Below, in pieces: positions 2,064 to 20,959 of a stretch of 64,000 bases of DNA. This stretch comes from Pseudomonas sp. CFBP 13711 (GTDB lineage: Bacteria > Pseudomonadota > Gammaproteobacteria > Pseudomonadales > Pseudomonadaceae), in contig NZ_JACYVI010000008.1 of assembly GCF_014842265.1 (NCBI RefSeq), positions 62,001-126,000 on the forward strand. Direction: 5' to 3'. Made by a program: the position numbers and the translations under genes. The number at the start of each line of letters is the position of its first letter. The stretch's first letter is position 1. The notes beneath the pieces were generated by a model, which was not told where the DNA came from, made no database searches, and saw only the letters and a list, made by a program, of their open reading frames with translations.

Positions 2064-2111
2064 TAGGGTCTCCGCAGCGTGTGTTAAGCAGCGTGTATCA
2101 ACCAGCGTGGG

Positions 2112-3335: not shown

Positions 3336-3378
3336 GATGTCACACCGCAAAACCACTGGCGCACGATAGGCGCAGCCA

Positions 3379-4236
3379 TCACTCCGACGCCGGTCGCCAG
3401 CTCCCCAGCATATGCACGATCCCTTCCGCCCCTTCCAGCTTGAGCTGCCCATGTGACCCCGCCGCGCTGGCCGACAACGTCACCCCGCTGGGCAGCCGTA
3501 CCGGTTTGTGAAACTCCACCGATATCTCCACATTCGACGCCGGCAGGTGATCGTCAAGCGCCGCCAGCGCACGGCTTTTTATCCACAGCCCGTGGGCGAT
3601 CGCCTTGGGAAAGCCGAACAGCCTGGCGCTGCTGTCACTCAGGTGAATCGGGTTGTAATCACCACTGACCTTCGCGTACTGACGACCAATGTCCGACGGC
3701 GCCGACCACGTTGCCAATTCCGTCATCGGCAGTGGCGCGGGTTCATAATCACCTTCGATCTCACCGTCCACCTGAACACCTCGGCAGAGCATCGTGCTCT
3801 CTTCCTCCCACAGCAGGCCCAGCGCGTCCTCGATCTGGGTGATCAGGCTGAACGTCGCACCTTTGGCGTGGGGCTTGAGGTGGCCGACACGCACGCTCAC
3901 CTGAACCTTGATCACGCTGCCAAGGGGCCGACGAATGCTGATCCGGTTATGCAGGTGGACCAATCCGAGGAGCGGGAAGGGAAAGTCCTTGTCGGTGAGC
4001 AGCTTCATCTGCAGCGGGAAAGCCAGCACATGGGGATAGGTTGGCGGCAGCAGACTGCCGGGCACGAATCCGCAGACGTGGGCAAACGCTTTCACCCTGT
4101 CCGGGTCCACCGACATCCAGCACCGCAGCCCCTGATCCGGCAATTGCGTGCCGCTGACCTTGCGCCGCAGCGCCGCTTGCATGAACAGGCCGGGAAGGGC
4201 CGGGGGCGTGTCCAGATACCGCCAGTGCACACTCAT
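3379..4236 (-). CDS. MaoC-like hot-dog dehydratase
   Basis: 285 residues. The C-terminal half carries the MaoC/R-hydratase signature: SGDYNPIHLSDSSARLFGFP followed by AIAHGLWIKSRALAAL, where D-(x)4-H of the hydratase motif supplies the catalytic Asp and His. The N-terminal half (PPTYPHVLAFPLQMKLL) looks like a degenerate second hot-dog. Such proteins hydrate trans-2-enoyl-CoA to 3-hydroxyacyl-CoA. The adjacent ketoacyl reductase and thiolase support a role in acyl-CoA metabolism. The exact substrate is unknown. Confidence 0.8.
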   Translation of the reverse strand: MSVHWRYLDTPPALPGLFMQAALRRKVSGTQLPDQGLRCWMSVDPDRVKAFAHVCGFVPGSLLPPTYPHVLAFPLQMKLLTDKDFPFPLLGLVHLHNRISIRRPLGSVIKVQVSVRVGHLKPHAKGATFSLITQIEDALGLLWEEESTMLCRGVQVDGEIEGDYEPAPLPMTELATWSAPSDIGRQYAKVSGDYNPIHLSDSSARLFGFPKAIAHGLWIKSRALAALDDHLPASNVEISVEFHKPVRLPSGVTLSASAAGSHGQLKLEGAEGIVHMLGSWRPASE

Positions 4237-5788: not shown

Positions 5789-5881
5789 TTTTCGTCAGGG
5801 GGCACAAAAACGCCAGGCCTGCTGCGGTCGTGCTTCCGCAACCGATGCCCGCAAGATCCAAAAAAGAGAAAGGAGATTTCG

Positions 5882-7159: not shown

Positions 7160-7185
7160 TGTTTTTAAAGGGTGGTTTAAAGACG

Positions 7186-7368
7186 CGCGATACGCCGTGT
7201 TGACTACTGTCAGAAATGACAGTACGGCCGAGGTCTATTAATCAGTCAGCCGGTAAAGCAACGGCTTGGCGGCATATATCGCGGATGGAAATGAGCGCTA
7301 TGAGGAATTGGTCTGAGGCTTAACGTGAGGGGCCTGATGTATTTAAGGATATAAATAAATCTGACCCC
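7186..7368. repeat. 183-bp direct repeat, copy 1 (control-region remnant)
   Basis: About 90% identical by eye to 10725-10907. It starts CGCGATACGCCGTG, contains the palindrome ACTGTCAGAAATGACAGT (7206-7223) and ends AAATAAATCTGACCCC. Copy 2 is the upstream control region of the Ig-like gene at 8399-10666. Copy 1 directly follows the thiolase and has no Ig-like gene attached, so it is probably the leftover of a deleted module (inference). No gene is seen at 7160-7425. Confidence 0.85.
7206..7223. promoter_or_regulatory. Palindromic operator-like site, copy 1
   Basis: ACTGTCA-GAAA-TGACAGT: two perfect 7-bp arms around 4 bases. It is one of five related sites (also 10745-10762, 13479-13494, 15555-15570, 18801-18816). 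Here it lies in an orphan repeat without a linked Ig-like gene. The cognate regulator is not known. Confidence 0.5.
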
Positions 7369-7425
7369 TACAAGACCTAGATGAATCAGACCCTTTATAA
7401 GAACCTTTTATAGGTTCTTTATTTT

Positions 7426-8112
7426 CTAGGTAGGTGGGTCGTCCAAGCTTTCAAGTATACCTATTACTCTAACGAAGTTAAGGTTGCTCGGTGAATCCTG
7501 GTAGACACTTGTAGATGGGAAATCCCAAACTTCTGGAGTTGGTGAGCAGCACCAGCATTTGCGATATCCCCCTCGGTCAGGTGGAAACGGAGCTCCATAC
7601 AGGGTTGCAAGAACTGATATATGTCTCCGTTCTACAGGCTTAAGGTTGTGTTCTTGTGACTGTTCGACTGCTCGAGCATGAGTGGCCTGCCAAGTCTCCT
7701 ATTGCCTCATAACGTAAACATTAGACACGTTAACGGTGTATCTGACGTTTTGATTAAGAGCGTCCGTTACGGTTATTGTGCTGTTGCCCCATCCTCTACC
7801 TTTGACTTTTCCTTGAGAATCCACGGAGGCATAACGTGTACTGCTTGATGAATATGTGTAAGGCGGCGTCCCCCCTGAGGCTTTTCTTACCTGAGTATTA
7901 CCGGCAGTGTCACTGCCGTTTAGCGTCCACTCTGGGCTACCTCTTACATATAAGCCATCTAGAATCATCGTCGTCTGGTCAATCGTCAAAGGCTCAGGTA
8001 TCGGTTTAGCAATCACAGTATAACTCTGCACTGGAAACGCCTGACGCGTTAGCCCGCCATCAAACGACATTTCGAGTATCAGTCTTAACGTCGAACCATC
8101 GGTTAGGTTTTG
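7426..8112 (-). pseudogene. 3' remnant of an Ig-like repeat protein gene
   Basis: Reading down the minus strand from 8112, the frame gives QNLTDGSTLRLILEMSFDGG, which matches QNLTDGSQLNLVLEVLFDDG of the intact gene at 8399-10666. It continues through a Big-2-like segment (GNSTITVTDALNQNVRYTVN). A TAG at 7699-7701 interrupts it, and the same frame stays open for 90 more codons to TAG at 7426-7428, encoding ETWQATHARAVEQSQEHNLK and a Cys-containing tail. There is no 5' end: at 8111-8113 the sequence switches abruptly to an AraC gene fragment on the other strand. A truncated, probably inactive copy. Confidence 0.75.
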
Positions 8113-8371
8113 GACACCGACTCACCGACACGACTGGGTGCAGTTTTCCTACGCCATCAGCGGCGTGCTTGGCGTGCACACACCCCATGGCAGTTTCTTT
8201 GCGCCGCCGCAGTGGGGCGTGTGGATTCCGGCCGGGCTCGATCATGAGGTTGTCACGTCGACCCGGGCCGAGATGCGCAGCCCGTACGTGCGCAAGGAGG
8301 ATTGCGATTGGGCGCCAGATCGTTGCCGGGTGTTCGAAGTTTCGCCACTCGCCAGGGCGTTGATAATTTAA
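8111..8371 (+). pseudogene. AraC-family regulator fragment (cupin part only)
   Basis: Encodes WTPTHRHDWVQFSYAISGVL and onward, matching residues 40 to about 124 of the complete regulator at 15751-16557, then ends ...LARALII and TAA. It has neither the first 39 residues nor the HTH domain. The 5' junction is with the Ig-like remnant (shared bases TTGG/TGGA). The 3' break is at the same codon as in the other truncated copy (13674-14051), directly next to AATTTAAATAAATCCGA. Confidence 0.85.
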
Positions 8372-8398
8372 ATAAATCCGATCCCTTTTTTAAGCAAA

Positions 8399-10666
8399 TT
8401 AATCTGTCGCCGATTTAAATAAATCAGACGCTTTGTCAATTTTCCCCCATTTGATATTGTCCAATATTACGGTTAGAAACCAATCATTCGTGCCGTTAAA
8501 AGAAGTTCGCTTGAAAGTGATGTTGGTTATGTCTGTTCCATATAGCGTTATTTTTTGGGATGGTCTCGGTGATAATGTCATGGGTCTAGGTTCTTCCGAG
8601 CTTAGGCAGGTTACTATGCAGTTGCTATTTCCCGCTATTACACTTATATCCATTGATACATAGGAGGGTTTTGACCCTGTCTTAAATATTATTTCTGCAG
8701 GGTCATTAGAGGTCTGAAGCGAAATGGCTGTGCTTCCCGCTCGAGTAATGATATTATGATGCAAAGGCACAAGAGAGTCCGCGCCACCCTTGAATTTCAG
8801 GTCGGCAGTTTCAAATATGGTTGCGAATTCCCCTATCGGGGATTCATCAAAATTTTCCGATCCTGAACCGCTTCCTTTACCTTTGGGAATCAACTGTAAT
8901 TTCAATAGCGGAAAGTCATTAGCGCCATTGAGTGAATCGCTGCCATCTAGCTGAACTTTTGCCGGAAACTCAATCGTTGCGATGTCAGAAAATAGCTCTA
9001 GACTGGCCCTACTTATTGAACTGCTGATGCCACTCGTGTCTTCACCTGGTGCGACCTGATGCTTGTCCAAAATAGGGAGTGGGGCTGTGCCGCCAGTCAT
9101 GTCAAGCCAAACTCTTTGCCCTTCTTTAATAAATGGCCATGGCTCAATAATAATTTCTGCATCACCGGTAAACGTCGACAAGTCCAGCACGCCCAATGTT
9201 CCATCGGTTGCCTGTGTAACTTTTGGCATTTTGAAATCTCCTTCCATGAGAGGCAGCACATTCAGTCTGAGTGCTGGTGAGGTCGACCACGTGGTGCCGC
9301 GTCGGACCGCATATTGAACATCTATGGTCTTACCCACTACGAGTCCAATTTCTGAGGGTGGAACAATGAAGGTAATTGTCGCAGCGCCGTTCTGCCAATC
9401 TACTGCGTCATTTTTGCCGTTCCAGAGCAGCGCGATGACGTCGCTAGGGAGCGGGTTTGGATAAATGATCTGAACGGTCGCGCCATTGATCACACGCATC
9501 GGAGCCAGCCCTTCGGGAGTATCTCCGAGGACCGCTAGCGGCGGCAAATTCAGCGTTGCGACGGTGACACTGTAGGTGGTTATGGGGGAATTCTGGATGC
9601 CCCCACCCACCTTGATTATTTGATAGCTCAACTGCAGCGTGCCGCCGCCCAGCGACTCCAGATTCGCGCGAGGAACCTCGAAGCGCACCTCGCCCGTTTC
9701 ACCACCCGCCAGCACGGTGTATTCGTGGCTATAGGTTATCGGCGTACCGTTGGCAGCGACTCCCGCCCAAGACAGCAAAAGTCGGTCCCCAGCCGTTTGC
9801 CCTATGTACGCATGGGTGTGGACGGTCACCGGATCGCCGCTGACAACGCCCAGTTCAATGACATCTCCAGTGGCGCCAACCAGTTCCAGAGCTCCGAGAG
9901 CGTATTCCGGCGCGGTCTTGATCTGGTAAGTCCGAATCGGAAACGGCTGAAGCGGCAGCCCGTCATCGAACAACACTTCTAGCACCAGGTTTAGTTGTGA
10001 ACCGTCGGTAAGGTTTTGCAGGTCTTTCCGCTGAACCGTGGCGACTTGCGCGCCAGTACTGCCAATTTCATACCCTTGCCAAACGGGCAGGTTTAAATTG
10101 CCGAAGCCTTGAAGTTGCATCCATGTCTTCTGTTTAAGCGCGATAAGTGGCCAAGCGTTTATGAAGATATCAGCGGCAGTTTGCAGCCCCCCGACGTCCA
10201 GAACGCCCCCTACCGCCTGAACGATCTGCGGCGCGGTTAATTGACCGACGGGAATCAGGCGCACGTCCAGATCGAGCGTCTGTGAGCGAACCGCGCCAGT
10301 ATTCCCTGCTACTGAATAGGAAACCTGCACGGTTTTGCCCACAGTCTTCGCAACATATTCCTTAGGCACGAGGAAGGTTACTTTCAGCTCGACGTTGCCC
10401 TTCTGCGGCACAAGAGTGTCCTCGCCGTTGAAGATCAGGGCAATCGTGTCGTCAACCGACATGGAGGGGTACGTCACTTCCACAAGGAGGCCGTCGGGGT
10501 CTGCACGATTGGGTTCAAGCAGCACGCCGTCTGGTGCTAGAGGGACGATGGGTGCAGGAAGGTTCGGGTCTTGTAGGGCGGTCGCATTCGAAGCCGAGTT
10601 GCTGGAACTCGCTGAAGCCAGTTCATTGGCGGGTAGTTTGTCTTGCTCGTCGTTTTTCCGGGTCAT
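8399..10666 (-). CDS. Ig-like beta-repeat protein 1, function unknown
   Basis: 755 residues; ATG at 10666 follows AAGGACC. A 35-residue Ser/Asn/Ala-rich leader without a signal peptide is followed by alternating beta-rich repeats. One repeat type has TYPSMSVDDTIALIFNGEDT (about 55-145, echoes near 255-370 and 375-470). The other has the phrase DLSTFTGDAEIIIEPWPFI (about 480-580; degenerate earlier copy ADIFINAWPLIALKQ). A final domain of about 165 residues begins SENFDESPIGEF and ends VILDNIKW. The repeats look Ig-like by pattern and length, an inference that needs structure prediction. GC is lower than in the core genes. No enzymatic motif is recognised. Confidence 0.8.
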   Translation of the reverse strand: MTRKNDEQDKLPANELASASSSNSASNATALQDPNLPAPIVPLAPDGVLLEPNRADPDGLLVEVTYPSMSVDDTIALIFNGEDTLVPQKGNVELKVTFLVPKEYVAKTVGKTVQVSYSVAGNTGAVRSQTLDLDVRLIPVGQLTAPQIVQAVGGVLDVGGLQTAADIFINAWPLIALKQKTWMQLQGFGNLNLPVWQGYEIGSTGAQVATVQRKDLQNLTDGSQLNLVLEVLFDDGLPLQPFPIRTYQIKTAPEYALGALELVGATGDVIELGVVSGDPVTVHTHAYIGQTAGDRLLLSWAGVAANGTPITYSHEYTVLAGGETGEVRFEVPRANLESLGGGTLQLSYQIIKVGGGIQNSPITTYSVTVATLNLPPLAVLGDTPEGLAPMRVINGATVQIIYPNPLPSDVIALLWNGKNDAVDWQNGAATITFIVPPSEIGLVVGKTIDVQYAVRRGTTWSTSPALRLNVLPLMEGDFKMPKVTQATDGTLGVLDLSTFTGDAEIIIEPWPFIKEGQRVWLDMTGGTAPLPILDKHQVAPGEDTSGISSSISRASLELFSDIATIEFPAKVQLDGSDSLNGANDFPLLKLQLIPKGKGSGSGSENFDESPIGEFATIFETADLKFKGGADSLVPLHHNIITRAGSTAISLQTSNDPAEIIFKTGSKPSYVSMDISVIAGNSNCIVTCLSSEEPRPMTLSPRPSQKITLYGTDITNITFKRTSFNGTNDWFLTVILDNIKWGKIDKASDLFKSATD

Positions 10667-10724
10667 TTCAGCGGTCCTTGGCTAGTCGACGTAGTGGAGC
10701 GTCATCCATGGAGACAGAGTGCTC

Positions 10725-10907
10725 CGCGATATGCCGTGGTGGCTACTGTCAGAAATGACAGTACGGCTGCGGTCTATTGATCAGTCAGCCGGTAAAGCAA
10801 CGGCTTGGCGGCGTATATCGCGGATGGAAATTAGCGCTATGAGGAAATGGTCTGAGCGTTAAGCTGAGGGGGCTGATGTATTTAAGGATTTAAATAAATC
10901 AGACCCC
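10725..10907. repeat. 183-bp direct repeat, copy 2 (control region of Ig-like gene 1)
   Basis: Partner of 7186-7368. It lies upstream of the start at 10666, with the palindrome at 10745-10762 about 80 bp before the start codon, and ends with TTTAAATAAATCAGACCCC. The remaining gap to the next gene (10908-11010) is AT-rich and shows no gene. Confidence 0.85.
10745..10762. promoter_or_regulatory. Palindromic operator-like site, copy 2
   Basis: ACTGTCA-GAAA-TGACAGT, identical to 7206-7223, located 79 bp upstream of Ig-like gene 1. Its fixed place upstream of each Ig-like gene suggests a regulator binding site (inference). Confidence 0.55.
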
Positions 10908-11010
10908 TTTATCGTTAATCGCTCATATTGCTTTATTCTCATCATTGATATGATTGCCAGTAATGTAATTCTTTTCGCCACTGCTGGCAACGCATTGCGA
11001 AGCACCAAAA

Positions 11011-13344
11011 TTATTCTGACGCTTTTGCGTATAACTTTATATTTTCAATAGTGACTCTTGTTTGCCAGCCGTCATAGACGGCAGTCACTTGAAATGAGCT
11101 GATATCGTCATGGCTAAATTCATAGTGCTGCATGTCTGTTCCAGAGATTACCCGCTCATCTACGTCGCCGTCTTTATAAGTGCATATAAGGCGGCCGTCT
11201 CCCGCGATGTCAAAACGGAGGTCAATTGTGGCTCTCTTGTAATGTCCTATGAATGAAAATTTGATATCTGCTTCGCCTCTTTGGACCGTGGCTTTGAGTG
11301 CTCTGCCGCCTGCCGCCCCGATCACACTAAGATTTGTACCCGTAATTGTCATGCCTTTGGCGTCGAAGGGTGATGGCTTGTCCCCTGATGCGTAAGTTTC
11401 AAAGTCCTCGACTATATCTCCACTGCCGCCGCCATTATGCTGCAATAGTAATTTCAAAGCAGGGAAAGGTCGTGCGCCATTGGCGGATCTGCTACCGTTA
11501 AATTGAACCTTTTGAGCAAACTCCAGCAAACTTCCGTCCGGGGTCGTTTCCAGCAGAGATCTTCTAATCGGACGAGTGATACCTGTAGACACTTCATCCA
11601 ATGTCACCGGATAGGCATTCAGAAAATGTTGCGTGCTGCTCTCGCTGATCATGTCTAACCACACCAGTTGGCCCTCAGCAATCACTGGCCATGGGGGAAT
11701 AATGAACTCAGCATCGCCAATGAATGTTGATAAATCGAGTTTGCCTGGGGTGCTCTCTGTCGCTTGTGGGATCTTAATTATTGTCATATCTTCCTCCATG
11801 AGGGGTAGTATTGTAAGCGTTAACGATTCCGAGATTATCCCGCCATCCACACCGTTGATCACATACTTCACCAGAATGTCTTCACCAAGCGCTTTTGCCA
11901 CATGGGAAGAGCCAACGGTGAAGATAACGGCTTTCGTGTCGTTGCCGTATTGCGGCACGAATGTGTCTTCACCGTTGAAAATCAGAGCAATCACGTCATT
12001 GGGTGACATCGATTCATAAGTCACCTTCACGTGAATGCCTTCGGGGAGTACATCCAGAGGGGAAAGAACGTTGTTCGAGGCCTCCGACACTGTTGGGGCG
12101 GGGTAGGCCGGATCTTGCTGGGCGGCTGAGCGTGGAGGCGAGGTGTCGTAACTCGCCGAAGCCAGTGCCTTTGCGGGTAGTTTTTTCTTTTCCAAGGCTT
12201 CGGCATTGATTCGCAGTGTTATGTTATCCAATGCAACCGTTAACCTGTCACCCGTGTAGTAGGGCGAAAACTTCAGGCCTTTTATTACGCCGTGTCCGCT
12301 GAATTCGACATTTTTATGAACCCCAACGGCCAGAGTTTGATCTGAAGGGGTCTGAGCCTCACAGTCAATTTTGCACATGCTATCAAATACGGTGCAATCA
12401 AATGCTATACATGTGTAATCTATATTATTAAATGTCGCGTTTACTGGAAAGTTGTGATTGATGTCAAATGCCAGCACCTTATTGTTGTCTATCTCTTTGA
12501 TCAGGCGAGGCAGGTCGCCGAATACGAAGTCTATGTATGTGGTTTTGAATTCAGGTTCGGTGAGGTTCCCAGGTGAATATTTTGAAAAGTCTTCTGTGTG
12601 CTCTCGTTTGCTGGGGTCCACGAGTCTTAGTTCCAGTAAAGGAAGTTCGCATATGATGTCTTCTGTCATCTGGAGCTTTCCGGGAAAGCTAATCACTTTC
12701 TGATCAGGAATCCGCTCCAGATAAGTCCGGCTGATTGGGCTACTAATACCGTCGGTAACTTCGCCCGCTACTACTGAATGCCCGTTAAAAATGGGGAGCG
12801 GGTTGGTGCCGTCCGTTATGTCAAGCCAAACTTTCTGTCCTTCGCTAATTAAGGGCCACGGCTTAACGACTATTTCTGCATCGCCGGTGAATGTCGATAG
12901 ATCCAACTCGCCCAATGCTCCGTCAGTGGCTTGTATGACTTCAGGCATTTCGATATCTCCTTCCATGAAAGGCAGCACTGTCAGCTGCAGTATGTCTGAC
13001 TTCTGTCCAGCGCTCTCATCGCTAAGCGTGTATTGAATGTCGACGGTTGTTCCAAGGGCTTTGATGATGTGCGGCACCGAAACCCAGAAAGAAACAGAAG
13101 TATGGTTCTCCACCTCTATCGGAACAAAGGTGTCGTCAGCATTAAACTTCAGTGCGATCACATCCCCTGGCTTTATGGATGGGTAAGTCACCACCACTTC
13201 CAAACCCGCAGCGGTCACTTGCTTCGGCGACAGAAATTCGCCAAGCGCCACGGGAACGGTAGGTTTTGGGTAGATCGGGTTAAGCCGCTGCGGACTCGCG
13301 GATTTGCCCGTTGGCGAGTTCACCGCTTTTTTGGGTTTAGACAT
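11011..13344 (-). CDS. Ig-like beta-repeat protein 2, in-frame fusion of two paralogues
   Basis: 777 residues from MSKPKKAVNSPTGKSAS; this start is chosen over an upstream one because AAGGAAG precedes it and it aligns with the start of Ig-like gene 3. Residues 1-385 form one complete unit: TYPSIKPGDVIALKFNADDT, then LDLSTFTGDAEIVVKPWPLI, then a C-terminal domain ending LTVALDNITLRI. At about residue 387 a second unit begins with KKKLPAKALASAS, which resembles the N-terminal leader DKLPANELASAS of gene 1, and runs to the end (VTIENIKLYAKASE). It therefore looks like two whole genes joined without a stop. No signal peptide; function unknown. Confidence 0.8.
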   Translation of the reverse strand: MSKPKKAVNSPTGKSASPQRLNPIYPKPTVPVALGEFLSPKQVTAAGLEVVVTYPSIKPGDVIALKFNADDTFVPIEVENHTSVSFWVSVPHIIKALGTTVDIQYTLSDESAGQKSDILQLTVLPFMEGDIEMPEVIQATDGALGELDLSTFTGDAEIVVKPWPLISEGQKVWLDITDGTNPLPIFNGHSVVAGEVTDGISSPISRTYLERIPDQKVISFPGKLQMTEDIICELPLLELRLVDPSKREHTEDFSKYSPGNLTEPEFKTTYIDFVFGDLPRLIKEIDNNKVLAFDINHNFPVNATFNNIDYTCIAFDCTVFDSMCKIDCEAQTPSDQTLAVGVHKNVEFSGHGVIKGLKFSPYYTGDRLTVALDNITLRINAEALEKKKLPAKALASASYDTSPPRSAAQQDPAYPAPTVSEASNNVLSPLDVLPEGIHVKVTYESMSPNDVIALIFNGEDTFVPQYGNDTKAVIFTVGSSHVAKALGEDILVKYVINGVDGGIISESLTLTILPLMEEDMTIIKIPQATESTPGKLDLSTFIGDAEFIIPPWPVIAEGQLVWLDMISESSTQHFLNAYPVTLDEVSTGITRPIRRSLLETTPDGSLLEFAQKVQFNGSRSANGARPFPALKLLLQHNGGGSGDIVEDFETYASGDKPSPFDAKGMTITGTNLSVIGAAGGRALKATVQRGEADIKFSFIGHYKRATIDLRFDIAGDGRLICTYKDGDVDERVISGTDMQHYEFSHDDISSFQVTAVYDGWQTRVTIENIKLYAKASE

Positions 13345-13478
13345 GAGACGCTTCCTTGAAGGGTATCCCTTGCACGTCTTCACCCCGTCGAAACTTGAAG
13401 GCTGGTTGAGGGCTGACCGCAAGGACGTTTTAATCTCTGGCGCAGGACCATCATCAGCGCCGGACAAGCATCTGTCTG

Positions 13479-13494
13479 CTGTCACAAATGACAG
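13479..13494. promoter_or_regulatory. Palindromic operator-like site, copy 3
   Basis: CTGTCA-CAAA-TGACAG in the 329-bp divergent region (13345-13673) between Ig-like gene 2 and the truncated AraC gene; 135 bp upstream of the Ig-like start. The flanks GCATCTGTCTG and GTGCACA are shared with copy 4 at 15555. Confidence 0.55.
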
Positions 13495-13673
13495 TGCACA
13501 AATCACGTAGGCGACTCACGCGCCTGAGAACAGGGGGTATAGGCAGCTAATCGCGGAATGAGCCACGCGTAATGAAAAATCCATCTAAGGCCTGAACACC
13601 GCACTTAATCAGCCCTGCGGGTTCCCATTCGCAGCAAGCACGTAAACTGCAGCCTCTTACAGCAGGCCAGCCC

Positions 13674-14051
13674 ATGCCCACCACCGGACACATCTCCCCG
13701 CGAAACCCCGAGACCGAGCGACAAGTCCCTTGGCTTGAAGATCTCCCGCGCCCGCTTTACGCCCGCGCCGAAAGCCTTGGCGCAGGTTCCTGGACACCGA
13801 CTCACCGCCACGACTGGGTGCAGTTTTCCTACGCCATCAGCGGCGTGCTCGGCGTGCACACACCCCATGGCAGTTTCTTCGCACCGCCGCAGTGGGGCGT
13901 TTGGATTCCGGCCGGGCTCGATCATGAAGTTGTCACGTCGACCCGGGCTGAGATGCGCAGCCTTTACGTGCGCAAAGAGGATTGCGATTGGGCGCCAGAT
14001 CGTTGCCGGGTGCTCGAAGTCACGCCACTCGCCAGGGACTCGATAATTTGA
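13674..14051 (+). pseudogene. Truncated AraC-family regulator (N-terminal domain only)
   Basis: 125 codons from ATG, closely matching residues 1-124 of the complete regulator at 15751-16557 (both start MP.T.HISPRNPETERQVP). It ends ...PLARDSII and TGA. The whole DNA-binding domain is missing; the sequence changes at the same codon as in the 8111-8371 copy, next to AATTTGAATAAATTCGACCC. The start and reading frame are intact, so a cupin-only protein could be made. It might be inert or might interfere with the full-length regulator (inference). Confidence 0.8.
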
Positions 14052-14136
14052 ATAAATTCGACCCTTTTTTTACATCATTCGAAGGTCCAGGCGTACTTGA
14101 AGGTTTGCGAGAGTGCTGACCATCTGGTTCAGTCAT
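14046..14136 (-). pseudogene. 5' remnant of another leader-type gene
   Basis: On the minus strand an AAGGACAG site precedes ATG at 14136, then MTEPDGQHSRKPSSTPGPSN, a short Ser/Pro-rich leader like those starting the Ig-like genes. The frame then runs into the AATAAATT junction and the reverse strand of the truncated AraC gene. It may be the decapitated start of a lost Ig-like gene. The evidence is only position, leader style and ribosome binding site. Confidence 0.35.
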
Positions 14137-14228
14137 AATCCTGTCCTTGTGATTACCGCTATCCGACGGGGCGCCGGGATATCCGGTATTTTGGACAGTC
14201 ATAAATAACCCGAAGTTTGCAAGCAGCG

Positions 14229-15425
14229 TCACAGCTGGAGGAATGGAGTTCCCGTCGTGTCGTTAAATCTGAAATTATCTAAAAGAAATTCAGTTTCCAT
14301 GGGTATGGCGTTAATGGCATAAAGTCGCAGTTCTTTTATACCGGGTGCGTCAAATCTCATGGTTTTGAAATCTGACACCCCACGCTCTTGGGGGATTGTG
14401 TCGGAGTCATTGTAACAATAAACTACGCATGCTCCATCAGTCACTGCTAGGTCAAATGATACGTAAGAAGGGGTAATTCCACGGTTGAATGTAATAATTA
14501 CTATGCCGCCAGTCTTAGCGGTATGCATTTTTAAATAGATGGATCCGTTTTCACTAGCGATTTCATTTGGATGACGGGTTGTGCCAAACGAAACTTTCAT
14601 GTTCAAAGTGTTTAGGTCGTGGTCAAGTACTCGCGGTACGAGGTCGTTGAAATTCTCAGAGTACTCGGTTCCCCCTGCCGTGCCCAAGAGGCGCAGCTTC
14701 AGAGTCGAAAATTCCTTCGCACCCACGACTGTATCGGTTCCATCAAACTGCACCTTCAGCGGAAACGTAATTTCGCTATTATTTGCAATCTCCAGGAGTT
14801 CAGTCCTGCTGATGCCGTGTGTAATTCCCGCGGAAATGTCTGCATTCGTTACCGAATAGCTTTTAAGAATGTTCGAGGTGCCTTTGTTGCTCACCATGTC
14901 GAGCCATACGCGTTGTCCCGCGGCTATCAGAGGCCATGGCTCGATGGAAATGTCTGCATCACCGGCAAATTTAGAAAGATCTAACTCGCCCGGCGCGCCA
15001 TCTGATGCTTGTTCAACTTTGGCCATTTTCAAATCTCCGTCCATAAATGGCAGCACAGTTAGCTGCAATACTTCCGACTGATTCACATCACCCTCACTGC
15101 TGACAGTCTTGTAATAGATTTCCACCGTTTCGCCTAGCGTCGGAACGATGTATGAAGCAGATATCCAGAAAGAAACCACTCTTTCATCGCCAACCTCAAT
15201 TGGAACGAATGTGTCGATACGGTTAAATATGAGTGCGATTACATCGCCAGTTTTGATCGTCGGGTAAGAAACCTTTATCTCCATCCCGGCGGGGCTTACC
15301 TGCGTCGGGTCTAATACTGCATTGGTCGCTAACGTGACTAAGGGCTTAGGGTAAAACGGGTCTTGATGCCGCGGTTCGCCGGATTGTGTCGCTGTGTGGC
15401 GTAACGCATTTTTGAATTTGGACAT
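14229..15425 (-). CDS. Ig-like beta-repeat protein 3 (single-unit form)
   Basis: 398 residues; ATG at 15425 follows AAGGAAGATTGTC. The single-unit layout is: 30-residue leader, Ig-like repeat with SYPTIKTGDVIALIFNRIDT (about 50-125), second repeat with LDLSKFAGDADISIEPWPLI (about 145-245), then a C-terminal domain starting EYSENFNDLVP (about 255) and ending TEFLLDNFRFND. It corresponds to each half of protein 2, so about 390 residues is the basic unit of the family. No signal peptide or catalytic motif seen. It lies divergent to the intact AraC gene, its likely regulator (inference from position). Confidence 0.8.
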   Translation of the reverse strand: MSKFKNALRHTATQSGEPRHQDPFYPKPLVTLATNAVLDPTQVSPAGMEIKVSYPTIKTGDVIALIFNRIDTFVPIEVGDERVVSFWISASYIVPTLGETVEIYYKTVSSEGDVNQSEVLQLTVLPFMDGDLKMAKVEQASDGAPGELDLSKFAGDADISIEPWPLIAAGQRVWLDMVSNKGTSNILKSYSVTNADISAGITHGISRTELLEIANNSEITFPLKVQFDGTDTVVGAKEFSTLKLRLLGTAGGTEYSENFNDLVPRVLDHDLNTLNMKVSFGTTRHPNEIASENGSIYLKMHTAKTGGIVIITFNRGITPSYVSFDLAVTDGACVVYCYNDSDTIPQERGVSDFKTMRFDAPGIKELRLYAINAIPMETEFLLDNFRFNDTTGTPFLQL

Positions 15426-15554
15426 GACAATCTTCCTTGAGGAGAGCCGTGGGTAGGTCGCTGCCCATTAAAAGATGCGCGTCGATTTGGGGCGGTAGTG
15501 AGCTTTAAATAATCGACGCAAGGTCATCATCTACCCGGCGTAAGCATCTGTCTG

Positions 15555-15570
15555 CTGTCACAAATGACAG
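15555..15570. promoter_or_regulatory. Palindromic operator-like site, copy 4
   Basis: CTGTCA-CAAA-TGACAG within the 325-bp divergent region (15426-15750), 130 bp upstream of Ig-like gene 3 and 181 bp upstream of the complete AraC gene. It is a good candidate for the binding site that controls both genes. Confidence 0.6.
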
Positions 15571-15750
15571 TGCACAGATCACGGAGGCGTCGCAGGCGCC
15601 CGAAAACAGGAAGTTGGTAGTGGCTAACCTCGAGACCAGCCAAGCTTAATGAACAATCGTTCTAACCCTCAGCTTCGCCCCTGATGACCCGCATCTGGTA
15701 CCCATCCGCGGCAAAAACGTAAACTGCCGCCTCACACCAAAGGCCAGTCC

Positions 15751-16557
15751 ATGCCCGCCACCGCACACATCTCCCCGCGAAACCCCGAAACAGAGCGACA
15801 AGTCCCTTCGCTTGAAGGCCTTTCGCGCCCGCTCTACGCCCGCGCCGAAAGCCTCGGCGCAGGTTCCTGGACACCGACTCACCGCCACGACTGGGTGCAG
15901 TTTTCCTACGCCATCAGCGGCGTCCTCGGCGTGCATACACCCCACGGCAGTTTCTTCGCGCCGCCGCAGTGGGGCGTGTGGATTCCCGCCGGGCTGGAGC
16001 ATGAAGTTGTCACGTCGACCCGGGCTGAGATGCGCAGCCTTTACGTGCGCAAAGAGGATTGCGATTGGGCGCCAGATCGTTGCCGGGTGCTCGAAGTCAC
16101 GCCACTCGCCAGGGAGTTGATAAAGACGTTTTGTCAGTTGCCAGCGGATTACCCGGAGCTGGATAGCGCCGAGTCCCGCCTTGTTCAGGTATTGCTCGAC
16201 CAGCTGGCGAATTTGCCCGAGGTGGGTTTCTCGCTCCCGCTACCTCGTCATCCACGCTTGCTGGGACTGTGTGGTGAACTGATCGAAACGCCGGATCAAG
16301 CGGTCACCCTGAATGACTGGGCGGCGCGTTTGAACATGTCGGAAAAGACGCTCACACGATTGTTTCAGCGCGAAACCGGCTTGAGCTTTCGGGGTTGGCG
16401 GCAGAGGGCACGCTTGCTGTCGTCACTCAATGCTTTGGAGGAAGGGGTGAGCGTTACGAGCACGGCGCTCAATTGCGGTTACGATTCGACGTCGGCTTTT
16501 ATTGCTGCTTTCAAAGGGCTGTTCGGGAGGACACCTGGCGAACTGTTTCGCGGATGA
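15751..16557 (+). CDS. AraC-family transcriptional regulator (complete copy)
   Basis: 268 residues. N-terminal cupin domain with THRHDWVQFSYAISGVLGVH and PPQWGVWIPAGLEHEV (residues about 43-86), then the AraC double HTH (about 185-268): VTLNDWAARLNMSEKTLTRL and ALNCGYDSTSAFIAAFKGLF followed by the GRTPGE signature. It resembles the short cupin-AraC regulators that control neighbouring genes. Two truncated copies of its 5' half lie at 8111 and 13674, each beside an Ig-like gene. The ligand is unknown. Confidence 0.88.
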   Translation: MPATAHISPRNPETERQVPSLEGLSRPLYARAESLGAGSWTPTHRHDWVQFSYAISGVLGVHTPHGSFFAPPQWGVWIPAGLEHEVVTSTRAEMRSLYVRKEDCDWAPDRCRVLEVTPLARELIKTFCQLPADYPELDSAESRLVQVLLDQLANLPEVGFSLPLPRHPRLLGLCGELIETPDQAVTLNDWAARLNMSEKTLTRLFQRETGLSFRGWRQRARLLSSLNALEEGVSVTSTALNCGYDSTSAFIAAFKGLFGRTPGELFRG

Positions 16558-16790
16558 TGAGCGAAGCTTGCGTGGTTGCGCTGTAGTCGCTCGTCGACAA
16601 GCGCGGTGGTAGAGGCTGTCAAGCGGTGTAGATATGCGTCGGCACGAATGCTGCTTGGCGAAGTGTCAGGGATATCGTGAGACAGCTGGCATACAGTCAA
16701 TCGACCTGACCCCCTACTCGCTGGCAGAGGATTGCCGTATAACGAGCAACAATCGCGTGTTTGGCAACGAAGGACCCCCAATAAAAGCTG

Positions 16791-17684
16791 ATGAAGACTC
16801 CTAAACGCATTGAACCCCTGATCGAAGACGGTCTTGTGGACGAGGTGCTGCGCCCGCTCATGAGCGGTAAAGAGGCAGCTGTTTATGTGGTGCGCTGTGG
16901 CAATGAGCTGCGGTGTGCCAAGGTTTACAAGGAGGCCAACAAACGTAGTTTCCGTCAGGCAGCGGAATATCAGGAAGGCCGTAAGGTCCGCAACAGCCGC
17001 CAGGCCCGCGCCATGGCCAAGGGTTCGAAGTTCGGCCGCAAGGAAACCGAAGACGCGTGGCAGAACGCCGAAGTCGCGGCTCTGTTCCGTCTGGCAGGCG
17101 CCGGCGTGCGAGTGCCCAAGCCGTACGACTTCCTTGAGGGCGTACTGCTCATGGAGCTGATCGCCGATGAATACGGTGATGCCGCGCCGCGTCTGAATGA
17201 CGTGACGCTTGAGCCGGATCAGGCGCGCGAATACCACGCGTTCCTGATTCAGCAGATCGTGCTGATGTTGTGTACCGGTCTGGTGCATGGTGACCTGTCC
17301 GAGTTCAATGTGCTGCTCACGCCCACGGGGCCGGTCATTATCGACTTGCCGCAAGCGGTGGATGCGGCGGGCAACAACCATGCGTTTACCATGCTGGAGC
17401 GCGACGTCGGCAACATGGCGTCCTACTTCGGCCGCTTCGCGCCGGAGCTGAAGCAGACGCGCTATGCCCGGGAGATGTGGTCCCACTTCGAAGCGGGCAC
17501 GTTGTCCCCAGCGACCGTGCTGACGGGCGAGTTCGCTGATCCGGACGAGATTGCCGACGTCGGCAGTGTGTTGCGCGAGATTGAAGCGGCGCGACTGGAC
17601 GATGCAAGACGCCAAGCCGCGAGAACGGCGGACGATGCGCCGCCGAACAAAACCGAAGAACCGCCTCCGCCCTGGATGCAGTAA
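16791..17684 (+). CDS. RIO-type serine protein kinase
   Basis: 297 residues. RIO1-like kinase core: ATP-loop region MSGKEAAVYVVRCG (about 25), catalytic Lys in RCAKVYKEAN, hinge LLMELI, catalytic loop LVHGDLSEFNVLL (about 163), metal-binding IIDLPQAVD (about 182). The C-terminus is Pro-rich (TEEPPPPWMQ). Bacterial RIO proteins are less studied than the ribosome-maturation kinases of eukaryotes, and targets here are unknown. The gene is flanked by Ig-like modules but is of core base composition, with its own terminator. Confidence 0.85.
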   Translation: MKTPKRIEPLIEDGLVDEVLRPLMSGKEAAVYVVRCGNELRCAKVYKEANKRSFRQAAEYQEGRKVRNSRQARAMAKGSKFGRKETEDAWQNAEVAALFRLAGAGVRVPKPYDFLEGVLLMELIADEYGDAAPRLNDVTLEPDQAREYHAFLIQQIVLMLCTGLVHGDLSEFNVLLTPTGPVIIDLPQAVDAAGNNHAFTMLERDVGNMASYFGRFAPELKQTRYAREMWSHFEAGTLSPATVLTGEFADPDEIADVGSVLREIEAARLDDARRQAARTADDAPPNKTEEPPPPWMQ

Positions 17685-17696
17685 TCGACCCAGAAA

Positions 17697-17723
17697 AACA
17701 CCCGGCTCAGGCCGGGTTTTTGC
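17697..17723. terminator. Bidirectional rho-independent terminator
   Basis: CCCGGCTCAGGCCGGG at 17701-17716 followed by TTTTT on the plus strand and by TGTTTTT on the minus strand. It sits between the convergent RIO kinase gene and Ig-like gene 4, so it can serve both. Confidence 0.85.
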
Positions 17724-17725
17724 GT

Positions 17726-18580
17726 TCACACCGATGCTACTCTGAGCAGTTGCGAGAACAGGTAGTGAGGGTCTCCCGGATTGACCCCTACGCTGCAATT
17801 GAAAACTGCCGGCTTTCCCCTGTTTCGAGCTAGCCAAGATGGATCAATCTTGAAGTTTAGATGAGGGTCGCTACCAAACGCAGGCGTTATGTCTGCGGAC
17901 CATTGATCACCATCAGCGCCGATGGCGCGAACGCCAGCGGTGCTGTCTTTATTGAACTCGGGCTGCTTTTTTACCCGCAGATTATCGTGTCCATCGTTGA
18001 TGGTCGGGGCATCCACTTGGAATGAATGTCCTTCTACGGTGAGGAGGAGTGTCAACGAGGTAAAAGTCTCTGTGTCGGGGGGGCGTTTTACGGTGTAGTA
18101 GAGAGATGCGTTGTGGCCTATGACATCAATGACTTCATATTTCGATATCGGAAACGGTTGCAGCGACGGTGGGCTTCCCACCGTTTGGATGGGTGAACCA
18201 ATAGTGATGTTCCGACCCACCCAATACGCTTTCACGGTATCGCCAGACTTCATATTGTAGTTAGGAACGATACAGTGAATAACATCGTTTACCTGGTAAT
18301 AATCCAGCCGCTCCCTGTTATCCGCAACCAAGGTTGCCTCCCTCACATGAGGTGCCACCAGATTCATCGCTGCCTCGGTCACCGTAATACGCCACTCATT
18401 GGAGCGACCTGTGATGGTGCGCGCGGTAAAAGTGTGCAAGCCCGGTGGAAGATTCCGGGCGTTGAATGACCAAGTTGCACCGTTACTTGTAGCTGTGCCC
18501 AGCAGGGCTTCGCCATCGTAAATATTAATCAGGTCCACGTTTTGTGACGATTGGTCATTAGAAGGTGTGGGCAAATTCAT
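17726..18580 (-). CDS. Ig-like beta-repeat protein 4 (short form)
   Basis: 284 residues from MNLPTPSNDQSSQN; start at 18580 chosen because AAGGAGCTGTTC precedes it. The first domain (DLINIYDGEALLGTATSNGA then LPPGLHTFTARTITG) is a recognisable bacterial Ig-like pattern. The second (VNDVIHCIVPNYNMKSGDTV) follows the repeat type of the other three proteins, and the third begins DAPTINDGHDNLRVKKQPEF. It lacks the LDLSTFTGDAE repeat and the long C-terminal domain. No signal peptide. Most divergent member of the local family; function unknown. Confidence 0.75.
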   Translation of the reverse strand: MNLPTPSNDQSSQNVDLINIYDGEALLGTATSNGATWSFNARNLPPGLHTFTARTITGRSNEWRITVTEAAMNLVAPHVREATLVADNRERLDYYQVNDVIHCIVPNYNMKSGDTVKAYWVGRNITIGSPIQTVGSPPSLQPFPISKYEVIDVIGHNASLYYTVKRPPDTETFTSLTLLLTVEGHSFQVDAPTINDGHDNLRVKKQPEFNKDSTAGVRAIGADGDQWSADITPAFGSDPHLNFKIDPSWLARNRGKPAVFNCSVGVNPGDPHYLFSQLLRVASV

Positions 18581-18800
18581 GAACAGCTCCTTGCCGGTTT
18601 GCAAACTATAAGGTGAGAAGTGAAGGCTAGTAAGAGGGGTTTAAATCGTCAAGTTTACGCATTGTTTTTATTTTTTCTTGAGTAGTTGGTCGCCTGTCTC
18701 TAATAGGTTAATAATTTTGTCTTGCCCATGTGCGGTTGCCAAGTGGCTAGAGCTATTTGCGATAAGCGCTGCATGGATTATTTCGAAGCGGTATCGATCA

Positions 18801-18816
18801 CTGTCATATGTGTCAG
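18801..18816. promoter_or_regulatory. Imperfect palindromic site, possible copy 5
   Basis: CTGTCA-TATG-TGTCAG differs by one base from the palindrome of the other modules. It lies 221 bp upstream of Ig-like gene 4 and 90 bp upstream of the halovibrin-like gene. The rest of the 325-bp gap 18581-18905 is AT-rich with no gene visible. Confidence 0.35.
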
Positions 18817-18905
18817 TTGGCAAAGCCCGTCCAGTGAATGATGCTTGAACGGCCGAATATCATTTTTTGACATGGATTGCCATTGATTATCATCAGGAGA
18901 TCAGC

Positions 18906-19838
18906 ATGAATAGATTCGGATCTGTCGCGCTTGCACTTATCTATATCGGACTTGTTGCATGTGTAGGCGAGCAGCCTTCATTAAACGGGCCCCACGGTAA
19001 TGATCCTCGATTTACGCAGAGTCCTGCTATTCAGCAAGATACCGGCGATGATGTTGCGCGACATCTAGAAGACCGGTACAGCAAGACAGCTGCAGATTGC
19101 GGAACGCCTTCACAGCCGTCCTTTCTGTGCAATGGAGTGATGATTAGAGGCACCAGCAGTGAACCGACTTACCACGTATGGGAGAACAGTGCTGCTTCTA
19201 TTGAAAAGGGTGGCGTCTCTATTTCCTACTTAAGGTCGGATGTTAATTACAATAAGCTCGCCTACGGGTACAACAACGGCTATATCTTGACCGCTTATTT
19301 TTATGCGGCTGAGAAACTGCACCCCGAGGTGCTGTGCCTCTTTCCGATCGATGCGGGTACCTCGGCCCGTACAAACAAGGGATGTGGTGATTACCCTAGT
19401 TATGCAGGTAGCGGCCCCTGCCATCTACAGGGCATTACCACCGCAACGGAGTGGTGGACGCATTACAACTCACACGCCAGCAGTCGCCATAGCTACCAAT
19501 GCGGATTTGATGTTACCGATGCCAGAAACTCGGCGGCAGGACCTGCCTTCGCTGCGGGATTGGCGGCAATGGGTTTGATGGGGTCTGAGTCGTTTAGAGA
19601 GCAGAACGAGCTCATCCTTGCAGTCTGGGGAAATGGATTGGGCAAGACCCTCCCGCTGGAAGCTTTTTTCTACGTGGCTGGCCTGCCTGGATTGACTGTC
19701 GCACAACGTAATCAGCTGGATCTCAATAGTACTGATGGGGTATGGATACCTGTGATAAAGCTCACACTTCCGGCGAGTGAAGGGGGCAAGGCGACGTTTA
19801 CTTACAGTGCAGGAGATCAGGTTATTACGAAGTCGTAG
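18906..19838 (+). CDS. Halovibrin (HvnA)-like lipoprotein 1
   Basis: 310 residues from MNRFGSVALALIYIGLVACV; start at 18906 follows CAGGAGATCAGC and yields a proper lipoprotein signal with lipobox LVAC. The body contains the features I associate with halovibrin HvnA-like proteins: DCGTPSQPSFLCNGVMIRGT, YLRSDVNYNKLAYGYNNGYI, PEVLCLFPIDAGT, and multiple Cys (QCGFDVTDAR). Vibrio halovibrins were reported as secreted proteins acting on NAD or ADP-ribose; activity here is untested. A close paralogue follows 170 bp downstream. Confidence 0.65.
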   Translation: MNRFGSVALALIYIGLVACVGEQPSLNGPHGNDPRFTQSPAIQQDTGDDVARHLEDRYSKTAADCGTPSQPSFLCNGVMIRGTSSEPTYHVWENSAASIEKGGVSISYLRSDVNYNKLAYGYNNGYILTAYFYAAEKLHPEVLCLFPIDAGTSARTNKGCGDYPSYAGSGPCHLQGITTATEWWTHYNSHASSRHSYQCGFDVTDARNSAAGPAFAAGLAAMGLMGSESFREQNELILAVWGNGLGKTLPLEAFFYVAGLPGLTVAQRNQLDLNSTDGVWIPVIKLTLPASEGGKATFTYSAGDQVITKS

Positions 19839-20008
19839 TCATCATCCATTACTCCTGATGTTAACTCACAGATATTTGGATGAATATTTGACGGAGTGTT
19901 CAGTTTTAAGTTGTTTCATAGCAGCTTGTGGTGTAACGAAACCGAGAAGGTGCAATGGTCTTTTTGGATTATTCTAGAAGTTTTCGTGTTTTGGCTTCGG
20001 AGGCCATT

Positions 20009-20959
20009 ATGAGAAAGATTAATAAGGTGGTGTTTTTACTTGTGTATGTCGTCCTTGTTGCTTGTGTCAGTGAGCAAAGATCGGGCTTCGATACAACTCA
20101 GCGTCCTATTCCGCATGTCGCGCACCGCGCTACGATACAGCAAGACTCTGGGGAGGACGTGGTCAGGCACCTCACCAATCGTTACGCCGACACAGCTGCA
20201 AATTGCGGAACGCCGTCGCAACCAGCGTTTTTGTGTAATGGGGTAATGATCCGCGGTACGAGCAATAGTCCCGGTGCGTATCACGTATGGGACAACAGTC
20301 CAGCAAGTATTACACGAGGCGGCGTGTCCGCGTCTTACTTAAGGTCTGACGCTAACTTCAGAAAGTTGGCCTGGGGGTATAACAACGGATACATCTTGAC
20401 GGCTTATTTATTTGCCGAGGGGAAACTGCATCCTGAGGTGCTTTGCTTATTTCCGGTTGACGCAGGCACGGGGAGCAGGACTGACAGGGGGTGTGGTGAG
20501 CATCCAGGAACAGTAGGCAGTCGTCCCTGCCATTTACAGAACGTTACAACTGCAGCGCAATGGTGGACTCATTACACATCGCAGCCTGGCAATTTACACT
20601 ATGCGCAGTGCGGATTCGACGTGAGCGACGATCGAAACGATAATGCAGGTCCCGCGTTTGTTGCTGGATTAGAAGCGATGTCCTTAATGGGATCTCAGGC
20701 TTTTGTAGAGAACAATGAGCTTGTCCTCGCCGTCTGGGATAGCGGCTTGGGTAAAACGTTACCGCTTGAAGCGTTTTTCTACTTGGCAGGCTCAGCCGGG
20801 TTGCCTGTCGCTCAGCACAACCAAAGCGATCTTATAAATACTGATGGAGTCTGGATACCGGTTATCAAAATTACCCTCCCCACTACCGCGGCCGGTAAAG
20901 TGACGTTTAGTTATAGCGCCGATGAGCAGACGCCTGTCCGTCCCCCTGTCCAGGGATGA
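20009..20959 (+). CDS. Halovibrin (HvnA)-like lipoprotein 2
   Basis: 316 residues from MRKINKVVFLLVYVVLVACV; CGGAGG lies just upstream of the ATG at 20009. Lipobox LVAC, then the same layout as the preceding gene: NCGTPSQPAFLCNGVMIRGT, YLRSDANFRKLAWGYNNGYI, PEVLCLFPVDAGT, QCGFDVSDDR. The pair arose by tandem duplication (inference). It ends in a Pro-rich tail. Each copy has its own ribosome binding site and a 170-bp AT-rich leader, so independent promoters are possible. Confidence 0.65.
   Translation: MRKINKVVFLLVYVVLVACVSEQRSGFDTTQRPIPHVAHRATIQQDSGEDVVRHLTNRYADTAANCGTPSQPAFLCNGVMIRGTSNSPGAYHVWDNSPASITRGGVSASYLRSDANFRKLAWGYNNGYILTAYLFAEGKLHPEVLCLFPVDAGTGSRTDRGCGEHPGTVGSRPCHLQNVTTAAQWWTHYTSQPGNLHYAQCGFDVSDDRNDNAGPAFVAGLEAMSLMGSQAFVENNELVLAVWDSGLGKTLPLEAFFYLAGSAGLPVAQHNQSDLINTDGVWIPVIKITLPTTAAGKVTFSYSADEQTPVRPPVQG

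What the first reader, a model, noticed from the sequence alone, without database searches (positions are those of the whole stretch)
7186..18580. Array of duplicated Ig-like / AraC modules
Four minus-strand Ig-like genes plus one 3' remnant, one complete plus two truncated AraC genes, two copies of a 183-bp control region and four to five shared palindromes lie within 11.4 kb. The recurring unit is: Ig-like gene, divergent control region, AraC gene. Seen directly: paralogous proteins, DNA repeats and matching truncation points. Inferred: a history of serial duplication with decay of the AraC part. The proteins have no signal peptide or known enzyme motif, so the role is open (surface, effector-like or intracellular beta-repeat protein).
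Basis: partly seen in the sequence, partly recalled or inferred. Interest (0 to 1): 0.8.

Follow-up and report, generated by a model that had tools for sequence, protein, structure and literature searches.

The report
Co-regulated leaderless Ig-CBM protein array
A Pseudomonas genome carries its own row of genes for sugar-binding-like proteins with a constant stem and a variable tip, and each intact gene has the same short DNA switch that is found in front of many toxin-like genes in the genus, which points to a shared control system not yet described in the papers searched.

Summary
Between thiolase and an AraC-type gene, under 0.3 kb apart in seven of eight relatives read, lie three intact Ig-like genes (B, C, D), an Ig remnant and two AraC 5' fragments. 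Models of D and B's C-terminal half show two Ig-like domains plus a carbohydrate-binding-module-like tip. Stem identity is 29-59%, tip 13-20%. No signal peptide is evident. The AraC fragments are sisters of the resident AraC, but the Ig genes beside them are far more diverged, so simple recent duplication of whole units does not fit. Main new result: a palindrome, CTGTCAnnnnTGACAG, lies upstream of B, C and D and, orphaned, beside thiolase. It occurs in 16 of 32 Ig loci read (13 of the last 20: 20 sites, about 0.02 expected). A -10-like box lies at one distance in half of those 20. Genomes are nearly all-or-none: 21 of 36 have 3-22 sites, 15 have 0-1. It also precedes Rhs/YD-repeat, SpvA-like, beta-propeller and halovibrin-like genes. 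AraC does not share its distribution. Its CT-N12-AG form resembles a lux box; the regulator is unidentified. No description was found in the open-licence papers searched.

The parts
7186..7369 (.). Orphan copy of the 184 bp region: operator 7207-7222 plus REP-like hairpin 7330-7367; no gene is left for it to drive
7699..8110 (-). R0, 3' remnant of an Ig gene: part of an Ig2-like domain plus a Big_2/intimin-like C-terminal domain; its 5' part is replaced by AraC DNA
   Evidence: Big_2 4.6e-6
8111..8365 (+). AraC 5' fragment 3, cut at both ends; 3' cut at a REP-like motif
8369..8431 (.). Two REP-like motifs (minus strand) on either side of the stop codon of B
8399..10666 (-). B, 755 aa, leaderless; B1 = Ig pair (aa 1-255), B2 = weakly related segment (aa 256-375), B3 = Ig-Ig-CBM-like (aa 376-755, modelled)
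10746..10761 (-). Operator of B, CTGTCATTTCTGACAG in gene direction, 79 bp before the ATG
10869..10906 (.). REP-like hairpin between B's operator and C's stop codon
11011..13344 (-). C, 777 aa, leaderless; two D-like units in tandem (C1, C2)
13479..13494 (-). Operator of C, CTGTCATTTGTGACAG in gene direction, 134 bp before the ATG
13674..14045 (+). AraC 5' fragment 2; 96% identical to resident AraC over 252 bp; cut at a REP-like motif (14049-14064)
14229..15425 (-). D, 398 aa, leaderless: Ig1 (about 25-125), Ig2 (126-247), CBM-like tip (248-392)
15555..15570 (-). Operator of D, CTGTCATTTGTGACAG in gene direction, 129 bp before the ATG
15751..16557 (+). Resident AraC-family regulator, complete (AraC_binding + HTH_18)
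17726..18604 (-). E, Ig-like (weak Big_7/Big_3_5, below the curated cut-offs), only loosely related to B-D; 81% identical copy in G205
18801..18816 (.). One-mismatch operator CTGTCATATGTGTCAG between E and hvn1; the G205 copy is exact (CTGTCAGAATTGACAG)
18867..19838 (+). hvn1, halovibrin-like (35.6% identical to Serratia plasmid proteins annotated HvnA/HvnB)
19955..20959 (+). hvn2, second halovibrin-like gene (71% identical DNA to hvn1 over 300 nt)

Best explanation
The array is a set, private to this species among those searched, of leaderless multidomain adhesin- or lectin-like proteins (constant Ig-Ig stem, variable CBM-like tip; in R0 an intimin-like tip). It was built at a recombination-prone spot between thiolase and a resident AraC gene. 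Each intact gene has its own operator, CTGTCAnnnnTGACAG. The operator belongs to a genus-wide regulon that also holds other Ig-like genes, Rhs/YD-repeat and SpvA-like genes, beta-propeller proteins and halovibrins. Its place just upstream of -35, its fixed distance to -10 and its CT-N12-AG form suggest an activator of the LuxR/lux-box kind. AraC and its fragments are passengers. Shown: array anatomy, shared fold of two members, stem/tip contrast, operator enrichment, near all-or-none distribution, no link of AraC to that distribution. Inferred: activation, LuxR type, export without a signal peptide, and binding of host or neighbour glycans by the tip.
For: Short site: thiolase and AraC are 116-117 bp apart in G020, G205 and G203 and under 0.3 kb apart in 7 of the 8 loci L080-L087. 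Private: at E<=1e-22, 7 of 397 other genus genomes carry a D relative, none over 38% identical, while D and C1 are 40% identical over 365 columns. Fold: D residues 246-392 match CBM structures (8wc1 Z 12.2, rmsd 4.1, 131 aligned; CBM29 Z about 10) and 18-247 tandem Ig (5gni Z 10.7, rmsd 6.2, 186 aligned); B3 matches the same kinds (8x8h Z 10.9, rmsd 3.2, 127 aligned; 5gni Z 10.3, rmsd 5.6, 180 aligned). Stem 29-59% against tip 13-20% identity among D, C1, C2, B3. Operator: 9 exact sites in the 6.19 Mb genome, 4 in the array; 13 of 20 loci (L275-L294) taken by Ig homology alone, 20 sites in 349 kb; each of the 20 has an ORF of 250 aa or more starting within 200 bp on one side (better side chosen, no control run); a YTARAT/YTAAT box at one offset in 10 of 20, at most 1 at any other offset or on the other side. 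Distribution: 21 of 36 same-genus genomes with 3-22 sites, 15 with 0-1, reversed control 0 in 34 of 36; association with Ig genes p = 2.6e-5. Regulon content.
Against: No expression, binding or secretion was measured. Of the 12 Ig loci read before L275-L294, only 3 (L076, L078, L094) hold an exact operator and 2 more (L093, L095) one with a mismatch; some of these stretches are cut near the gene. 7 of the 20 later loci have none exact. The four Ig genes of G320's own array have no operator each: the exact sites of L076 lie at 2890 and 16139, outside the array. 3 of 22 Ig-positive genomes have no site at all (G007, G015, G024) and 2 operator-positive ones have no Ig match (G002, G017). B, C and D have poor -10 matches at the consensus offset. 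LuxR proteins could be read for only 5 of 8 operator-positive genomes that have a single autoinducer-domain LuxR; G000's differs by eye from the other four. C1:83373 and C6:241619 in the own genome precede no recognisable Ig gene. CBM is a fold resemblance; binding residues were not examined. Models rest on 10 sequences (pTM 0.53-0.55).
Confidence: 0.57

Rival explanations
1. The neighbouring AraC regulator controls the Ig genes from the divergent region; Ig - control region - AraC is a functional unit.
For: D and AraC are divergent and 325 bp apart; the AraC 5' part recurs beside C and B.
Against: AraC ortholog distribution (E<=1e-100, my threshold) is unrelated to the operator (p = 0.73). 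The AraC loci of relatives L077, L083, L084, L086, L089, L090 hold no exact operator. Operators stand at Ig loci of genomes without that ortholog: G011, G016, G029, G030, G031, G032, G033, G034.
Confidence: 0.1
2. The modules were brought in by homologous recombination from close relatives that each carried their own Ig gene beside a working AraC, leaving AraC 5' scars, rather than copied within this genome.
For: AraC fragment differences are mostly synonymous (7 of 10 and 12 of 17 changed codons against 26-27% expected under neutrality; P = 0.004, and 0 of 1500 simulations), as if they diverged while in working genes; Ig parts are very diverged; GC of the array is low.
Against: Both fragments are sisters of the resident AraC (support 0.976); no donor was found; gene conversion with the resident AraC would give a similar pattern (100% identical blocks).
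Confidence: 0.35
3. The operator is a LexA/SOS box (CTGT-N8-ACAG) and the genes are damage-inducible.
For: The outer bases fit the CTGT-N8-ACAG form (recalled).
Against: Inner bases are CA....TG in 31 of 43 CTGT-N8-ACAG sites in 37 stretches read, not the AT-rich centre of SOS boxes (recalled); genomes are near all-or-none for it, whereas LexA is near-universal (recalled); it lies upstream of -35 at a fixed distance, as for an activator.
Confidence: 0.07
4. The genes are decaying, unexpressed remnants of an old insertion.
For: R0, two AraC fragments and an orphan operator are plainly decayed; the array was found in no other genome searched; weak -10 boxes.
Against: B, C and D are open over 398-777 codons; stem residues and operators are conserved.
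Confidence: 0.12

Closest known systems
Bacterial Ig-like (Big) adhesins of the intimin/invasin kind
   Same: Tandem Ig-like domains with a terminal binding domain; R0's end matches Big_2 and, weakly, intimin profiles
   Different: B, C and D have no Pfam or NCBIfam match up to E = 1, no signal peptide-like start, no barrel or anchor; tips of the two models are CBM-like
LuxR-type (lux box) regulons, including LuxR solos of fluorescent pseudomonads (PMC8546723 and PMC4338825; passages seen)
   Same: Palindrome with CT-N12-AG upstream of -35; all 21 operator-positive genomes have an autoinducer-domain LuxR
   Different: No common LuxR seen among the 5 compared; binding not shown; this regulon is not in the passages seen
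Pvf/Mgo (diazeniumdiolate) signalling regulon of Pseudomonas entomophila (PMC10194917; abstract, outline, section 9 and passages seen)
   Same: A signalling system controlling many secreted and virulence proteins; its receptor was still to be found
REP/RAYT palindromic repeats (recalled)
   Same: Short palindromic motif repeated between genes, at AraC break points here and at the same locus in G407
   Different: No RAYT gene beside it; one Y1_Tnp match in the genome, on another contig; six forms of the motif found in no paper searched

Membership tests
LuxR / lux-box regulon | 20-bp palindrome with CT-N12-AG | tested here: met
   Operator CTGTCAnnnnTGACAG; L278, L285 and L287 carry CTGTCAGATCTGACAG; definition from PMC4338825 passages
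LuxR / lux-box regulon | Box at fixed place just upstream of -35 (about -42 from the start site, recalled) | tested here: met
   -10-like hexamer centred about 34-35 bp beyond the box centre: T 50%, A 47%, T 67% at three positions among 106 sites and YTARAT/YTAAT in 10 of 20 other sites; weak in B, C, D themselves
LuxR / lux-box regulon | A LuxR-type regulator with the same distribution | tested here: inconclusive
   PF03472 in 21 of 21 operator-positive and 7 of 15 operator-negative genomes, p = 2e-4; of 8 operator-positive genomes with one such gene 5 were read, and G000's differs from the other four; relatedness of genomes not corrected
LuxR / lux-box regulon | Regulator binds the box | not testable with these tools
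   needs EMSA or pull-down
AraC-controlled unit | Operator found where the AraC ortholog is found | tested here: not met
   9 of 21 against 5 of 15, p = 0.73
Intimin/invasin-type Ig adhesin | Secretion signal and outer-membrane barrel or anchor | tested here: not met
   No hydrophobic start in B, C, D, E (max 12-residue KD 0.80-1.45 against 2.49-3.32 in hvn1, hvn2 and an autotransporter; no signal-peptide program was run); no barrel family
Intimin/invasin-type Ig adhesin | Tandem Ig-like domains | tested here: met
   Models of D and B3: 5gni Z 10.7 and 10.3
Carbohydrate-binding module | CBM beta-sandwich fold | tested here: met
   D 246-392: 8wc1 Z 12.2, CBM29 Z about 10; B3: 8x8h Z 10.9; C not modelled
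Carbohydrate-binding module | Ligand-binding residues and sugar binding | not tested
   none
Polymorphic toxin | Variable C-terminal toxin domain with immunity gene | tested here: inconclusive
   C-terminus is variable (13-20%) but CBM-like in the two models; no Pfam or NCBIfam match for B, C, D, one weak PHROG of unknown function for C (0.081); immunity genes not searched
REP/RAYT element | RAYT transposase flanked by the repeat | tested here: not met
   Only Y1_Tnp match lies on contig C3, the window on C8

The most novel reading that the evidence does not exclude
The operator marks an undescribed regulon of the genus Pseudomonas, present whole or absent whole, under one unidentified (lux-box-type) activator. 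It switches on together leaderless Ig-CBM proteins, Rhs/YD and SpvA-like toxin relatives, beta-propellers and halovibrins. The Ig-CBM arrays are its fast-diversifying recognition arm: a fixed stem with exchangeable glycan-binding tips.
Probability: 0.4. Interest if true: 0.8.

Novelty: new variant of a known kind. Interest (0 to 1): 0.6.

Why it matters
Many large leaderless Pseudomonas proteins (Ig-like, Rhs/YD, beta-propeller) have no known regulator or role. A single exact DNA box that precedes them, in genomes that have either 3-22 copies or almost none, gives a direct way to find the regulator by gene presence and to define the whole set. For the array itself, the stem/tip contrast makes a clear test of whether these are glycan-recognition proteins under diversifying pressure.

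Tried and rejected
AraC as the operator's regulator: rejected by distribution. A single autoinducer-domain LuxR: not settled. G000 has one PF03472 match, beside an mtnC-like gene by eye; G011, G016, G019, G033 and G034 share another type by eye. In one search my script returned no protein for 11 of 28 loci and non-LuxR frames for at least 3 (G002, G003, G009), so it is a partial look. LuxI in G000: no match, but the control rang nowhere, so inconclusive. Pvf/Mgo link: the papers looked at gave no operator; co-distribution not tested. PprB (PMC3510237, passages): raises hvnA but its promoter region was not retarded by PprB; not pursued.

Searches without result: D in plasmids and phages, PDB by sequence, PHROGs for B and D. 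Other palindromes in six Ig loci without an exact operator: GTCCCCTAGGGGAC occurs twice in L288 and once in L293; not followed up. The first score for a -10 box (TA...T) was blunt; I then looked at the sequences and counted YTARAT/YTAAT, so that motif was chosen after seeing the data; its place agrees within one to two bases. Whole-unit recent duplication: rejected as sole explanation. The R0 query was out of frame, so its lack of hits there means nothing.

Paper searches (10). Six forms of the operator core were in 3 unrelated papers, six forms of the REP-like motif in none; the other searches were by topic. Only open-licence PMC text was searched. Rows dropped: 13 of 33 AraC loci lacked my anchor, and among the 20 kept L083-L086 repeat genomes already there; one search kept 106 of 131 sites (GC at least 0.53, full flanks); one search kept 86 ORFs from 131 sites (same GC rule, start 25-160 bp away, no duplicates, at most 1500 aa). 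The full outputs were cut; I saw head and tail.
Full report
Observation. The array proper is B (8399-10666), C (11011-13344), D (14229-15425) and remnant R0. E (17726-18604) is only weakly similar and sits with two halovibrin-like genes; hvn1 is 35.6% identical to Serratia plasmid proteins annotated HvnA/HvnB. The genus is Pseudomonas: same-genus genome G106 has a contig of 22,473 bases with an operator at base 783, as has the Pseudomonas bohemica record L223.

Place. In G020, G205 and G203 thiolase and AraC are 116-117 bp apart with nothing between; the gap is under 0.3 kb in 7 of the 8 loci L080-L087 and 1.9 kb in L084; here it is 8.6 kb. The neighbourhood takes up Ig genes repeatedly: of these eight loci, L080, L081, L082 and L086 have genes similar to B, C or D, L084 two small ORFs, one with Big_3_5 at 8e-6, L085 the E gene, L087 only a weak Ig match (0.048), L083 none. 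L080-L082 were fetched because of their Ig hits, so this is no unbiased count. AraC is old in the genus: 356 of 398 genomes match at E<=1e-50, in two strength classes. In L077 and L090 its divergent neighbour looks by eye like a sodium symporter.

Assembly. AraC fragments 2 and 3 are 96% and 93% identical to the resident AraC over 252 bp, against 90% for the nearest other species, and group with it (0.976). Their differences are mostly synonymous. Along the C/fragment-2 copy against the D/AraC copy, identity in 50-base windows is 52-72% in Ig coding DNA, about 50-74% in the spacer outside the operator, 86-88% at the operator and 84-100% in AraC. Both fragments end at a REP-like motif. That motif has 11 matches at up to one mismatch in the genome, 4 of them in the array. 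It is clustered at the same locus in G407 (12 matches in L082), with 3 more in the other 51 loci scanned (795 kb in all). So the spot has been recombining, but whether modules were copied or imported is open.

Proteins. D was modelled from 10 sequences (pLDDT 82, pTM 0.55): two Ig-like domains, then a CBM-like sandwich. B3 (pLDDT 78, pTM 0.53) gives the same picture. Across D, C1, C2 and B3 identity is 29-56% in Ig1, 42-59% in Ig2 and 13-20% in the tip. R0 ends in a Big_2/intimin-like domain instead. No hydrophobic leader is seen in B, C, D or E, unlike hvn1 and hvn2. In 11 of 32 Ig loci read, an autotransporter lies in the fetched stretch; the own genome has 6 such genes in 6.2 Mb, so this looks more than chance, without a formal test.

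Operator. CTGTCAnnnnTGACAG stands before B, C and D and at the orphan copy. The whole genome has 9 exact sites: 4 here, 2 before Ig ORFs on contig C1 (L078, L124), one before a protein with a weak NTTRR-F1 match (L125), two before genes of unknown kind. A near-match lies between E and hvn1, exact in G205. In 20 loci of 19 other genomes taken by D similarity alone (L275-L294), 13 hold exact sites, 20 in all, in 349 kb (uniform expectation 0.02). Of the 12 Ig loci read earlier, 3 hold exact sites, so 16 of 32 in all. The four Ig genes of G320's array have none of their own. All 20 sites have a long ORF within 200 bp, the better side being chosen. A -10-like box lies at one offset in 10 of 20 and within one to two bases of that place among 106 sites of the collection scan.

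Regulon. The extended site occurs 20 times in 15 of 298 genomes, reversed control none. Of 86 downstream ORFs, Pfam found DUF5122 propellers in 8, thioredoxin in 4, T2SSE, VRP1 (SpvA-like) and RHS repeats in 3 each, trypsin in 2; only the 25 commonest families were shown. Others look halovibrin-like or Ig-like by eye, and G205's operator lies between E and a halovibrin-like gene. In 36 same-genus genomes the count is 3-22 in 21 and 0-1 in 15. It tracks Ig genes (19/2 against 3/12, p = 2.6e-5), not AraC (p = 0.73); autoinducer-domain LuxR is in all 21 positives and 7 of 15 negatives (p = 2e-4). Genome relatedness was not corrected.

Reading. The box has the CT-N12-AG form given for lux boxes (PMC4338825 passages) and an activator-like position. 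Yet no common LuxR was seen in the partial comparison, so LuxR type is a lead. Leaderless co-regulated toxin relatives suggest a shared release route such as lysis or a dedicated secretion system; this is inference. The most likely role is recognition of host or competitor glycans by released or surface-bound proteins with variable tips.

Verdict. A real array, found in no other genome searched; ordinary in being a tandem family, unusual in its domain make-up and in exposing a genus-wide operator that I found in no paper searched.

Noticed in passing
window 34001-38000: Strong local AT skew (-0.145 to -0.290) unlike the rest of the window.
   Followed up: no
window 18867-20959: Two tandem halovibrin-like genes with lipoprotein-like starts (LVACVG, LVACVS by eye); 71% identical DNA over 300 nt.
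   Followed up: partly
L078, L124 (G000 contig C1): A second Ig locus in the own genome: operator, Ig 850 aa and 1492 aa, then an autotransporter, a 590 aa ORF and Ig 444 aa with its own operator facing back.
   Followed up: partly
L076 (G320), 5822-13783: An independent array of four Ig genes (377-419 aa) in another species, next to an autotransporter, with exact operators only outside the array.
   Followed up: partly
L277, L281, L287, L294: Operator plus Ig gene directly after the end of very large ORFs that look like peptide synthetases by eye, followed by Dsb-like genes.
   Followed up: no
L211 (Aeromonas dhakensis): Operator 65 bp before an ORF that looks like a type VI sheath protein by eye; may be chance.
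   Followed up: no
L234, L262, L268: Operator before a type II secretion ATPase-like gene (T2SSE), three related cases.
   Followed up: no
L126:6808-7551 (G000 contig C6): Operator about 69 bp before a 247 aa ORF with no Pfam or NCBIfam match.
   Followed up: partly
L082 (G407), 1413-3654: Twelve REP-like motifs around AraC at the same thiolase-AraC locus.
   Followed up: partly
L288 and L293: Palindrome GTCCCCTAGGGGAC, twice in L288 and once in L293, Ig loci without an exact operator.
   Followed up: no
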